Shown in pieces: positions 61,267 to 64,000 of a DNA stretch of 64,000 nt (positions are counted from its first letter, which is position 1; every line of letters begins with the position of its first letter). A program made the translations under genes and the position numbers. The stretch covers positions 992,001-1,056,000 of the forward strand of contig NZ_CP107834.1 in the NCBI RefSeq assembly GCF_036346595.1. The letters run 5' to 3'. The notes beneath the pieces are model-generated. The model ran no database searches and had not been told where the DNA came from. It saw only the letters and a program-made list of their open reading frames with translations. This DNA comes from Streptomyces sp. NBC_00525. GTDB lineage: Bacteria > Actinomycetota > Actinomycetes > Streptomycetales > Streptomycetaceae.

Positions 61267-61544
61267 GGGATCTCCCTTGGACCGGCCGGCAGGATCTCTG
61301 CCCTACTCAGTGGTAGCAGCGCGGACCGGCTTTCCGGAAGTGTTCATGCCAAGTCAAATGGGTGAGCTTTCGACGACGGCTCCGTAACGGCCGGAAGGGC
61401 CAACTACCCGTTCCCACCAGGGGGTTGCAGCCACCCCGCACGGATGTTCTACTCCATTGGTCCAGGCCAATACCCCGCGGACAGGAGTCATCTCCTGTGA
61501 CTCCCGCGCATTCGCGGCGGCACCGACGAGAAGAGGAGATTTCC

Positions 61545-61766
61545 GTGAAGTTCATTACCGGACTCGGCGACACCCTGCTCCGGAAACTGGTGCCCGAAAC
61601 CGAGGCGCAGGCCGCCTGTGTCACCTGCGGCACGGGCTGCACGTCGTACAAGCAGTACAAGTGCGAGCAGGGCATGCGGCTCTTCGCCCGGTGCTGCTAC
61701 ATGGCGAACGGCAGCAACTGCACCGCCCCGTACTGCGGCAGCTGGAGCTACTGCGGCTTCTGCTGA
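61545..61766 (+). CDS. Cysteine-rich peptide precursor (putative secreted RiPP-like or disulfide-rich peptide)
   Basis: A 73-residue precursor. Residues 1-23 (MKFITGLGDTLLRKLVPETE then AQA) form an amphipathic leader, not a classical signal peptide. The remaining 50 residues hold ten cysteines at positions 25, 28, 32, 40, 50, 51, 59, 64, 70 and 73, spaced AC-x2-C-x3-C-x7-C-x9-CC-x7-C-x4-C-x5-C-x2-C, plus many Tyr, Ser and Gly. A cut after AQA is the obvious processing point. GTG 61545 is fixed by GAGGAG six bases before it; the upstream open frame to 61362 is not coding-like. The next genes encode a MauE membrane protein, a TlpA thioredoxin and an ABC exporter, suggesting oxidative folding and export of this peptide. 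Confidence 0.75.
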   Translation: MKFITGLGDTLLRKLVPETEAQAACVTCGTGCTSYKQYKCEQGMRLFARCCYMANGSNCTAPYCGSWSYCGFC

Positions 61767-61840
61767 CGCGGCCCGCACTTGATCGGGGCGGCCGACCGCT
61801 GACCGTCCGTCATCCGAACGGATTCCGACGAGGAGGACCT

Positions 61841-61954
61841 GTGCCGCGTCCGACACGGCTCCGGCCGTCCGGCCGCCACCGCCCGGCATGCCCGGCGGCC
61901 CTCCTCGCCGGGGTCCCGGCCGCCGGGGGAAGACCATGGCGTATGCCGTACTGA
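61841..61954 (+). CDS. Short open frame with strong ribosome site before mauE-like gene
   Basis: GAGGAGG precedes a GTG at 61841 that opens a 37-codon frame (MPRPTRLRPSGRHRPACPAA and onward) ending inside the first codons of the MauE-type gene. The product is Arg/Pro-rich with no recognised motif. It may be a translational coupling leader rather than a functional peptide. Confidence 0.3.
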   Translation: MPRPTRLRPSGRHRPACPAALLAGVPAAGGRPWRMPY

Positions 61955-62469
61955 CCGTGCGGTGGGCGCTCGCCGGGGTCTTCCTGGTGTCCGCCGCCGC
62001 CAAGGCGCGCGCCTTCCGGGACACGCTGACGATGGTGGAGCCGCTGCTGCTCCGCGCGGCCCGGCCGGTCGCCCGGCCGCTGACCCGGCCCGCCGCGCTG
62101 CTGCTGATCGCGGCGGAGGCCGCGACCGGGCTCGCCCTGCTCGGCGGGGCGCCCACCGCCGGGCCCGGTCTCGTCGCCGCCCTCGTCCTCACCGCCGGTT
62201 TCACCGCCCTCGCGGTGCTGGCCACCGTCTCGCGCACCGAGGTGAAGTGCGCCTGCTTCGGCCGCCCCGCGGCCCGGCTCGGCCCGCGCCATGTGGTGCG
62301 CAACGCCCTGCTGCTGGGCCTGGCGTGCCTGGGGCTGTGGGGGCCCGAGGCGGCCGCCGTGTCCGCGTCGGCCGGGCCGGCCCTCGTGATCTGCGCGACG
62401 GCCGCGGTGGTCGTCACCGCGGTGACCGCCTTCTACGACGACATCGTCGACCTAGTGAAGATCCCCTGA
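61936..62469 (+). CDS. MauE/DoxX-type membrane redox protein
   Basis: A 177-residue membrane protein with four helices: VLTVRWALAGVFLVSAAAKA, LTRPAALLLIAAEAATGLALL, LVAALVLTAGFTALAVLATV and a final pair. The KCACFGR motif near residue 105 is the CxCFG signature of the MauE family, which helps form disulfides in the methylamine dehydrogenase light chain. ATG 61936. It sits between the cysteine-rich peptide and a thioredoxin gene, so it likely passes electrons from peptide thiols to the membrane quinone pool. Confidence 0.82.
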   Translation: MAYAVLTVRWALAGVFLVSAAAKARAFRDTLTMVEPLLLRAARPVARPLTRPAALLLIAAEAATGLALLGGAPTAGPGLVAALVLTAGFTALAVLATVSRTEVKCACFGRPAARLGPRHVVRNALLLGLACLGLWGPEAAAVSASAGPALVICATAAVVVTAVTAFYDDIVDLVKIP

Positions 62470-62482
62470 AAGAGGAATGGGC

Positions 62483-63025
62483 ATGATCTATCTGACCGCC
62501 GGACTCGTGCTCGTGGGAGCCGTCACGGTACTCAATCTGATGCTGACCCTCGCGGTGATCAGGCGGCTGCGCAAGCACGAGGAGGAGCGGCGGCAGCAGA
62601 ACTTCGTCCCGCCCGAGTCCGGCCCGGAGACCGGCGCGGCGCTCCCCGCCTTCACCGCCGTGACCCTGGCGGGCGAGCCGGTCACCGCCGACTCGCTGAA
62701 GGGCCGTCAGGCCGCGCTCACCTTCCTGTCCACGGACTGCTCCGCCTGCGTCATGGCCGTGAACGACATGCCCGAGTTCGCCCGGCGGACCGGCATGGAC
62801 GCCTCGCAGATGCTGGTGGTCATCGCCGGGGACGAGGCCGACGCGCACCGGATGGCGGAGCCGCTCGCGGGCATCGCGACCGTGGTGGTGGAGGAGACCG
62901 GCGGCCCGCTCTCGGCGCTGTACTCGATCCGGGCGACCCCGACGACCGTGCTGGCGGACCCGGACGGCACGGTCACCTACGCCGAGGCCGGCACCAACCC
63001 CGTGCTCGAAGGCCTCCCGGCGTGA
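62483..63025 (+). CDS. TlpA/MauD-type membrane-anchored thioredoxin
   Basis: A 180-residue protein. One N-terminal helix (MIYLTAGLVLVGAVTVLNLM) anchors a thioredoxin fold outside the membrane. The active-site motif CSAC lies in FLSTDCSACVMAVNDM near 80-84, and the cis-Pro region is IRATPTTVLADPDGTV. MauD-type partners of MauE oxidise or isomerise cysteines during protein maturation. ATG 62483 gives a correct seven-base spacing from GAGG; ATG 62477 is too close. Its stop overlaps the ABC transporter start. Confidence 0.87.
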   Translation: MIYLTAGLVLVGAVTVLNLMLTLAVIRRLRKHEEERRQQNFVPPESGPETGAALPAFTAVTLAGEPVTADSLKGRQAALTFLSTDCSACVMAVNDMPEFARRTGMDASQMLVVIAGDEADAHRMAEPLAGIATVVVEETGGPLSALYSIRATPTTVLADPDGTVTYAEAGTNPVLEGLPA

Positions 63026-64000
63026 CCGGCGGCCAGGAGCCGGCCGTGCACCGGCTGGGCGGTCCCCGCGGACTGGTCACCGGCGCGGGCGCGGCCCTGG
63101 CCCTGACCTGGCGGGCGGGGCCGGGCGCCTTCACCTGCCAGGTCCTGCTCACCCTCGTACAGGGGCTGCTGCCCGCCGCGGTCACCCTGCTCACCAAGTG
63201 GCTCTTCGACTCCGTGCAGTACGGCACCATCCCGGGCGGGCTGTCGCCGATGGCCCTGGTGGCGGCGCTCGGCCTGTGCGGCACCCTGCTGGCGGCGCTG
63301 CCGTACGCCTCCGACTACGTCAAGTCCCGGCTGCGGCGCGGGATCTCCTACCGGGCGCAGCGGGAGCTGTACGGCAAGGTGGAGGGGTTCGTCGGGATGT
63401 CCCGCTTCGAGAACCCGGACTTCCTGGACCGGCTGCGGCTGGCCCAGGACTCGGCGACCGGGGCGCCCGACCAGATCACCACGGCGATGTTCGGCCTGGT
63501 GCAGCAGGCCACGGCCGTGACCGGGCTGGCCGTGGTCCTCTCCGGGGTCTCCCCCTGGCTGACGGCGGTCACCGTCGCGGCTGCGGTGCCCGCGCTGTTC
63601 ATCCAGGTCTCGCTCAGCCGCCGCGAGGCGCAGATGGTGTGGGCGATCAGTCCGCGCAACCGCCGCCAGTTGTTCTACCAGACCCTGATGCTGGACCTCG
63701 CCGCCGTGAAGGAGGTCCGGCTGTTCGGCGCCGGCGGCTTCCTGCTGCGGCGGATGAACGCCGAGACGCGGGCGATCAACGCCGCCGAGGAGCGGCTGGA
63801 CCGCCGGGTGCTGGCCTTCCAGGCCCCGACCTCCGCGCTGGGCGGGATCATCGCCGCGTGCGGGCTGGCGTGGATGATCCACGGCGCGCAGTCCGGCCGG
63901 TTCGGTGCGGGCGACGTGTCGGCGTTCATCGGCGCCTCGGCCGGCGTCCAGGGTGTCCTCTCCTCCGCCATCCTGCATGTCACCAGCGGCTACCAGGCGC
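63022..64000 (+). CDS. ABC transporter, membrane domain (partial; continues past the window)
   Basis: At least 326 residues, with no stop before the end of the window. The N-terminal membrane domain shows helices such as FTCQVLLTLVQGLLPAAVTLLTKWLF and LVAALGLCGTLLAALPYASDY and the exporter-type loop FENPDFLDRLRLAQDSATGAP. The ATPase domain is expected beyond 64000. GTG 63022 overlaps the TlpA stop (GTGA). As the last visible gene of the cysteine-rich peptide cluster it is the likely exporter; a peptidase domain is not present at this N-terminus. Confidence 0.85.
   Translation, partial: MTGGQEPAVHRLGGPRGLVTGAGAALALTWRAGPGAFTCQVLLTLVQGLLPAAVTLLTKWLFDSVQYGTIPGGLSPMALVAALGLCGTLLAALPYASDYVKSRLRRGISYRAQRELYGKVEGFVGMSRFENPDFLDRLRLAQDSATGAPDQITTAMFGLVQQATAVTGLAVVLSGVSPWLTAVTVAAAVPALFIQVSLSRREAQMVWAISPRNRRQLFYQTLMLDLAAVKEVRLFGAGGFLLRRMNAETRAINAAEERLDRRVLAFQAPTSALGGIIAACGLAWMIHGAQSGRFGAGDVSAFIGASAGVQGVLSSAILHVTSGYQA

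What the first reader, a model, noticed from the sequence alone, without database searches (positions are those of the whole stretch)
61545..64000. Four-gene system for a ten-cysteine peptide: precursor, MauE, TlpA thioredoxin, ABC exporter
The sequence shows a 73-residue precursor with ten cysteines in its last 49 residues and an amphipathic leader, followed by genes for a MauE-type CxCFG membrane protein, a membrane thioredoxin with CSAC, and an ABC exporter overlapping the thioredoxin stop. MauE/MauD are known to make disulfides in methylamine dehydrogenase light chain, but no such enzyme is visible here. Dedicated thiol oxidoreductases are known beside the disulfide-containing sublancin. 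The inference is a disulfide-rich peptide, perhaps antimicrobial or signalling, with its own folding pathway. I do not know this precursor family.
Basis: partly seen in the sequence, partly recalled or inferred. Interest (0 to 1): 0.85.

Follow-up and report, generated by a model that had tools for sequence, protein, structure and literature searches.

The report
Streptomyces cassette for cysteine-rich secreted peptides
A five-gene Streptomyces cassette appears to make, oxidise, export and trim a small peptide held together by disulfide bridges, and it recurs with similar machinery but very different peptides in relatives, which suggests a little-explored family of natural products.

Summary
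A 73-residue, ten-cysteine precursor (61545-61766) precedes MauE, a membrane TlpA thioredoxin (CSAC) and an ABC exporter. Past the window edge the exporter completes (631 aa) and overlaps by 4 nt a fifth gene, an S26 signal-peptidase-like protease.

The leader ends in L-V-P-x-x-x-A-x-A, a likely S26 cleavage site. Leader plus cassette recurs across the genus with very different cores: 50 MauE hits in 40 of 198 genomes; of 49 examined, 45 have TlpA, 44 the exporter, 42 S26, 41 a Cys-rich precursor. Cysteine number is even in 52 of 53 precursors. The genome's only other MauE gene belongs to a second cassette with an unrelated 8-Cys core. Seven named records, among them S. clavuligerus, Embleya and Nonomuraea, carry all four machinery genes.

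Most likely: an ABC-exported, oxidised and trimmed disulfide-rich peptide. Activity (probably antimicrobial) is inferred. MauE is lost or replaced in several close relatives, so it is not strictly required.

Not wholly new: decRiPPter (2020) flagged three mauE-containing candidate families with precursors of 8 or more cysteines. Added here: full cassette, shared leader, even-cysteine rule, hypervariable cores, wider range.

The parts
61533..61538 (+). GAGGAG, likely ribosome-binding site of the precursor
   Evidence: Read directly from the sequence; ends 6 nt before the GTG start
61545..61613 (+). Leader, residues 1-23 (VKFITGLGDTLLRKLVPETEAQA), ending in A-x-A
   Evidence: Columns P17, A21, A23 invariant in the 14-row alignment and the 12-row alignment; A-x-[AG] within residues 13-32 in 52 of 53 precursors (a loose pattern). 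Helix predicted at low confidence. The cleavage point is predicted, not shown
61614..61766 (+). Core of about 50 residues with ten cysteines, plus stop codon
   Evidence: three predicted strands, pLDDT blocks 79-86; even Cys number across the family
61936..62469 (+). MauE-type membrane protein with CxCFG, putative membrane partner in thiol oxidation
   Evidence: PF07291 78.4 bits, cut-off 27; C104, C106, F107, G108 invariant in the 20 members aligned
62477..63025 (+). Membrane-anchored TlpA-like thioredoxin (CSAC)
   Evidence: Redoxin 40.6 bits, AhpC-TSA 35.8 bits; first CxxC Cys invariant, second nearly so in 21 members
63022..64000 (+). ABC exporter, N-terminal part; the full gene (631 aa) ends at genome C1:1056917 and is followed with a 4-nt overlap by an S26 peptidase gene (C1:1056914-1057357), both beyond the window edge
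   Evidence: ABC_tran 108.7 bits, Peptidase_S26 70.4 bits; signal peptidase I model TIGR02227 57.7 bits, cut-off 47

Best explanation
The cassette makes one secreted, disulfide-bridged peptide. The ribosome makes a 73-residue precursor whose leader marks it for the dedicated ABC exporter. The exporter moves it across the membrane in reduced form. Outside, the membrane-anchored TlpA thioredoxin oxidises the cysteines and MauE re-oxidises TlpA from the membrane, giving five disulfides. The S26 peptidase cuts after Ala-x-Ala (after residue 23) and releases a core of about 50 residues. Shown here: gene order, conservation, cassette recurrence, even cysteine number, co-inheritance of exporter and core class. 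Inferred: direction of the redox step, order of events, cleavage site, five disulfides, export itself. Most likely role: antimicrobial or competition peptide (about 0.5); less likely a signal or surface-active peptide.
For: Census from MauE: TlpA 45, ABC 44, S26 42, precursor 41 of 49 loci examined; all four machinery genes in 7 of 7 named records scanned, out of 40 records that matched the exporter, and in S. clavuligerus ATCC 27064. Even Cys number in 52 of 53 precursors, 22 of 23 core clusters at 50% identity, binomial p 3e-6, and in 8 of 8 precursors of the seven named records; of 14 other ORFs that passed the same filter in those loci 6 are even (counted by hand). Leader more conserved than core: 100% against 86% and 92% against 71% identity in the two pairs with the window gene, core dN/dS 0.84 and 1.03 against 0.17 and 0.40 for TlpA, on few changes. 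A-x-A leaders beside an S26 peptidase. No C39 peptidase among the Pfam matches of the exporter, so another protease is needed. Exporter tree follows core class: 10 label changes against 21.3 shuffled, 0 of 200 as low, 32 of 49 rows labelled. Precedent: HumE (DoxX family) and HumF (thioredoxin) are assigned as the disulfide oxidoreductases of the two-disulfide lasso peptide humidimycin (PMC7168211, passages); in L142 and L143 a MauE found by the family profile sits in a lasso cluster with Asn-synthase-type cyclase, B2-type protease and two-Cys precursors.
Against: MauE is reduced to a remnant in L016, not found in L017, and an FtsX-type permease gene stands in its place in L028 and follows the precursors in L031, so it is not indispensable. 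One intact precursor has 7 Cys (L080). Of 18 loci reached by MauE alone, 8 gave no precursor: 2 cut by contig edges, 2 lasso clusters, and L134, L138, L139, L147. In L018/L019 the core is not fast: dN/dS 0.27 against 0.41 for TlpA; L016/L028 gives 0.64 against 0.35. TlpA proteins can be reductive (general knowledge), so oxidation is inferred. L070 and L071 have one of their two TlpA copies with CGPT in place of CxxC. At 40% identity the cores merge into 4 clusters and the parity p is 0.06. No product, disulfide map or activity is known; immunity genes were not searched for systematically.
Confidence: 0.78

Rival explanations
1. The cysteines bind metal, and MauE/TlpA keep them reduced, as in cytochrome c or copper centre maturation; the peptide would be a secreted metal carrier.
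For: Cys-rich; TlpA-family proteins include reductases; the TlpA's NCBIfam matches are MauD, ResA, StoA and DsbE, all far below cut-off.
Against: Even Cys parity in 52 of 53 precursors is expected of disulfides, not of metal sites; core length and Cys spacing differ so much that a shared metal site is unlikely.
Confidence: 0.1
2. The peptide is a small subunit or relative of an amine dehydrogenase light chain, matured by MauD/MauE as in the mau operon.
For: MauE family match; weak TIGR02661 MauD match (27.4 bits, cut-off 188.6).
Against: No PF02975 light chain in the genome, though no control genome rang so this is weak; no light-chain match of the precursors tested in PDB or Pfam; hypervariable cores do not look like an enzyme subunit.
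Confidence: 0.03
3. A classical RiPP with thioether or other cross-links, where MauE/TlpA only protect or present thiols.
For: Leader-core layout and exporter; a BTAD (SARP-type) regulator cluster beside 15 of 40 loci by BLAST, with two BTAD regulators confirmed by Pfam; one precursor, L075, gave sub-threshold cinnamycin (16.5 bits, cut-off 35) and DurB-like matches.
Against: None of the five cassette genes matches a lanthionine, radical SAM or YcaO enzyme. In the window locus the next genes are GNAT-like, DUF402 and SGNH-like (GNAT and SGNH are my reading). Genes around the other loci were not all scanned.
Confidence: 0.07
4. The product is a developmental signal or surface-active peptide for the producer rather than a weapon.
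For: No immunity gene recognised; BTAD and AraC-type neighbours could mean developmental timing.
Against: Patchy distribution (MauE hits in 40 of 198 genomes), plasmid locations and fast-changing cores in some pairs fit competition better than a conserved signal.
Confidence: 0.25

Closest known systems
decRiPPter mauE-containing candidate RiPP families in Streptomyces (Kloosterman et al. 2020, PMC7794033)
   Same: Streptomyces clusters with mauE (one also mauD) and predicted precursors of at least 8 Cys, no other mau genes found by them
   Different: There three separate candidate families, no product reported in the parts read; here one leader-defined superfamily with cores of 4-10 Cys, a MauE-TlpA-ABC-S26 cassette, parity and tree evidence. 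Their precursor table (S2) could not be compared
Siamycin-type class I lasso peptide clusters (humidimycin HumE/HumF, PMC7168211)
   Same: DoxX-family plus thioredoxin pair beside a disulfide-bearing secreted peptide
   Different: No lasso cyclase or B2 protease among the five cassette genes; longer cores with up to ten Cys
Methylamine dehydrogenase maturation (MauE, MauD)
   Same: MauE family; thioredoxin-like partner; multi-disulfide client
   Different: No light chain found (weak test); TlpA far below the MauD cut-off; client is a small peptide with an exporter and protease
Sublancin-type glycocins with thiol oxidoreductases (recalled)
   Same: Dedicated oxidoreductases beside a disulfide peptide
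   Different: No C39 domain match in the exporter and no glycosyltransferase match among the five genes
Laterosporulin/defensin-like bacteriocins
   Same: Small, disulfide-rich, beta strands

Membership tests
decRiPPter mauE candidate RiPP families | mauE homologue beside a small precursor gene in Streptomyces | tested here: met
decRiPPter mauE candidate RiPP families | No other mau genes in the genome | tested here: inconclusive
   Only PF02975 tried, control silent
decRiPPter mauE candidate RiPP families | Precursor with at least 8 Cys | tested here: met
   Ten Cys; 24 of 53 superfamily precursors have only 6 or 4
decRiPPter mauE candidate RiPP families | Sequence similarity to their listed precursors | not testable with these tools
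Methylamine dehydrogenase (mau) operon | MADH light chain (PF02975) | tested here: inconclusive
   No match in G000 but no control genome rang
Methylamine dehydrogenase (mau) operon | MauD equivalog (TIGR02661) above cut-off | tested here: not met
   27.4 bits, cut-off 188.6
Class I lasso peptides | Lasso cyclase and B2 protease in the cassette | tested here: not met
   Not among the matches of the five cassette proteins; wider neighbours not all scanned
C39-processed bacteriocins and glycocins | Peptidase C39 domain on the exporter | tested here: not met
   Pfam scan of the 631-aa exporter lists no C39 at E<=0.1
Cinnamycin-type lantibiotics | cinnamycin_RiPP NF033431 above cut-off | tested here: not met
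   Window precursor no match; L075 16.5 bits, cut-off 35
Defensin-like bacteriocins (laterosporulin) | Shared fold | tested here: inconclusive

The most novel reading that the evidence does not exclude
This is a bacterial counterpart of venom-peptide diversification: one conserved leader and one conserved export-oxidation-cleavage cassette, also carried on plasmids, that serves a large set of unrelated disulfide-rich cores (23 clusters at 50% core identity among 53 precursors) changing fast around paired cysteines, and so a distinct class of actinobacterial peptide natural products with no characterised member that I could find.
Probability: 0.45. Interest if true: 0.8.

Novelty: new variant of a known kind. 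Interest (0 to 1): 0.62.

Why it matters
If right, it gives a simple handle (leader plus MauE-TlpA-ABC-S26) to find a large set of stable, genetically encoded disulfide-rich scaffolds in actinomycetes, and a dedicated secretion and oxidative-folding route that could serve other Cys-rich peptides. It also gives MauE, whose exact role is not settled, a small and tractable client.

Tried and rejected

Rows dropped or weak: L067 (fused, degenerate frame, 7 Cys) and L092 (decayed copy) were left out of the parity count; L091, L095, L096 were taken as spurious hits; one of two end copies in G166 was not fetched; L146 was counted although its leader is atypical. The MauE profile behind the census was built from cassette loci, so the census is partly circular; the 18 loci reached only by MauE gave TlpA 14, family exporter 14, S26 11, precursor 10. 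Of 49 precursors in loci with an exporter, 42 lie upstream of it on the same strand; the rest are turned round or lie on the other side, one of them (L082) only because the script compared it with the other cassette copy.
Full report
WHAT IS THERE. The window is C1:992001-1056000 of genome G000. At 61545 a GTG-started ORF of 73 codons encodes VKFITGLGDTLLRKLVPETEAQAACVTCGTGCTSYKQYKCEQGMRLFARCCYMANGSNCTAPYCGSWSYCGFC, ten Cys in residues 25-73. It has a GAGGAG motif upstream and third-position GC of 0.93. It is followed by a MauE-family protein (PF07291) with KCACFG, a membrane thioredoxin with CSAC, and an ABC exporter that starts 4 nt inside the thioredoxin gene. In the continuation (L009) the exporter is complete at 631 aa and its stop overlaps by 4 nt a 147-aa S26 peptidase (Peptidase_S26 70.4 bits; signal peptidase I model 57.7 bits, cut-off 47). 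The finding is therefore a unit of at least five genes.

RELATIVES BY PRECURSOR. The 73-aa sequence matched 5 of 199 genomes of the genus, the own one included, with 6 loci. All six loci have TlpA, exporter and S26; MauE is in 4 of 6. In L016 MauE is reduced to a short remnant, and in L017 none was found. The contig scan (5 loci, three of them repeats of the above) added Streptomyces sp. AC1-42W (L028), where an FtsX-type permease stands in place of MauE and an extra ATPase gene lies before S26, and S. inusitatus (L031), with two precursors followed by an FtsX-type gene; L031 ends at a contig edge and the other cassette genes were not in the stretch held. A profile of 14 precursors then matched 29 of 198 genus genomes at E<=0.01.

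A LEADER FAMILY WITH HYPERVARIABLE CORES. The precursors share a leader of about 24 residues, roughly LGDxLLxRLVPxxxAxA; P17, A21 and A23 are invariant in the 14-row alignment. Behind it the cores differ widely and carry mostly 6, 8 or 10 cysteines. In 53 precursors from 47 loci the counts are 22 with 6, 14 with 8, 14 with 10, 2 with 4 and 1 with 7 (L080), so 52 of 53 are even. At 50% core identity there are 23 clusters, 22 even (p 3e-6); at 60% 31 of 32; at 40% only 4 clusters remain, all even, p 0.06. Two damaged loci (L067 with 7 Cys in a fused frame; L092 decayed) were left out. As a rough control, of 14 other ORFs that passed the same filter in those loci 6 are even and 8 odd (counted by hand). 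In pairs with the window gene the leader is 100% (L028) and 92% (L016) identical and the core 86% and 71%; core dN/dS is 0.84 and 1.03, TlpA 0.17 and 0.40. L016/L028 gives 0.64 against 0.35. In L018/L019 the core is the slower of the two, 0.27 against 0.41. Numbers of changes are small, so fast core evolution is suggested, not shown.

CENSUS FROM THE MACHINERY. I searched 198 genus genomes with a MauE profile (A3): 50 hits at E<=1e-15 in 40 genomes. For 49 I looked at the surroundings, TlpA within 3 kb, full exporter and S26 within 5 kb: TlpA 45, exporter 44, S26 42, all three 40, precursor in the locus 41. The profile was built from cassette loci, so I give apart the 18 loci reached only this way: TlpA 14, exporter 14, S26 11, precursor 10. 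Exceptions are an orphan MauE (L134) and two lasso clusters (L142, L143) with a PF00733 cyclase and PF13471 protease (tested on L142, near-identical proteins in L143) and precursors with two Cys. Gene order is mostly precursor, MauE, TlpA, ABC, S26; of 49 precursors in loci with an exporter 42 lie upstream of it on its strand, and in a few loci S26 or the precursor is turned round. G000 itself has two PF07291 genes; both are in cassettes. The second (L099, around C1:4942279-4946015) has MauE, TlpA, exporter, S26 and an 8-Cys precursor ending YCQCPAGTSTYCSGETLVTKFCCSWNCAAKPTCTYTYIYGGC.

NAMED RECORDS AND RANGE. A tblastn of the exporter against plasmid records matched 40 records at E<=1e-60, 25 of them listed. 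I fetched eight. Seven (S. atratus NBC_00041, S. clavuligerus F1D18, Streptomyces sp. NBC_00053 and NBC_00376, S. nigrescens HEK616, Embleya sp. NBC_00896, Nonomuraea gerenzanensis) all have MauE, TlpA, exporter and S26 (S26 on the other strand in Nonomuraea) and together eight precursors with 4, 6 or 8 Cys. The eighth, S. clavuligerus ATCC 27064 pCLA1, has the same cassette and the same two precursors as F1D18. Four of the eight stretches carry gene annotation, and there the precursor is called hypothetical protein. Nonomuraea shows that the family leaves Streptomycetaceae. An integrase gene near the S. atratus cassette and transposase genes near that of NBC_00376 suggest mobility.

CO-INHERITANCE. 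A maximum-likelihood tree of 49 exporters, 32 of them labelled by core class, needs 10 label changes against 21.3 for shuffled labels, 0 of 200 as low. Some classes (for instance the Trp-rich 10-Cys group) are not single clades. Exporter and peptide thus travel mostly together. ORFs of one BLAST cluster with a BTAD (SARP-type) regulator lie near 15 of 40 loci, and an AraC-type cluster near 5; one member of each was checked by Pfam, and the S. atratus regulator too. I recognised neither beside the window locus.

STRUCTURE. AlphaFold2 models of the window precursor (mean pLDDT 71, core blocks 79-86) and of a 6-Cys relative (L077, mean 68, core blocks 74-83) both show three strands in the core; the leader helix is at low confidence (under about 50) in both. 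Searches of the PDB gave only weak matches, so no fold is claimed.

HOW IT PROBABLY WORKS. The leader has no long hydrophobic stretch (my reading), the exporter shows no C39 domain, and an S26 protease is coded next to it, so I read: leader-directed ABC export, oxidation outside by TlpA with MauE as membrane partner, S26 cleavage after A21-Q22-A23. Even cysteine numbers argue for complete pairing. That TlpA and MauE oxidise rather than reduce is inference, supported by the DoxX-family/thioredoxin pair assigned to disulfide formation in humidimycin (PMC7168211, passages) and by the view of MauE quoted in PMC7794033. The loss of MauE in relatives suggests that TlpA can be served by another partner.

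WHAT IS KNOWN. decRiPPter (PMC7794033; passages and section 7) reported three candidate RiPP families with mauE, one with mauD, each with a precursor of at least 8 Cys, and proposed a role in precursor modification; I saw no product of them in the parts read. In four answered searches of the open-access library (20 of 61 listed, 30 of 457, 11 of 11, 40 of 42; listings only) I saw no other paper on such a peptide; most subscription papers and bioRxiv are not held, so this is no proof of absence. None of the 11 precursors tested against NCBIfam and Pfam reached a family cut-off.

VERDICT. Real, conserved, and more widespread than the finding claimed. Best filed as a new variant of a known kind: a disulfide-rich, leader-peptide natural product system with a dedicated MauE-TlpA-ABC-S26 cassette. 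Chemistry and activity are open and easy to test.

Noticed in passing
L099 (G000:C1:4936000-4953000): Second complete cassette in the same genome with an unrelated 8-Cys core.
   Followed up: yes
L142 and L143: A MauE found by the family profile sits in lasso-peptide clusters with two-Cys precursors (MKNTTTSLYEAPALLDAGDFTKVTLGRVSWGFDSSMLCRWLNCQV in both), LP2006-like by recall.
   Followed up: partly
L016, L028 and L031: MauE internally deleted in L016; an FtsX-type permease gene in its place in L028 and after the precursors in L031.
   Followed up: partly
L082 (G137): Two inverted copies of the cassette about 12 kb apart; the exporter of the first copy is split over several frames.
   Followed up: no
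G166:C1, 86240 and 9037807: Copies of the cassette near both chromosome ends in opposite orientation, perhaps in terminal inverted repeats.
   Followed up: no
L070 8612-9109 and L071 9749-10246: A second TlpA gene (CPSC) before the precursor; the TlpA after MauE has CGPT instead of CxxC.
   Followed up: partly
L073 6519-9041 and 14 other loci: BTAD (SARP-type) regulator cluster beside many cassettes, suggesting antibiotic-like regulation.
   Followed up: partly
L067 and L092: Decaying copies of the cassette with damaged precursors.
   Followed up: partly
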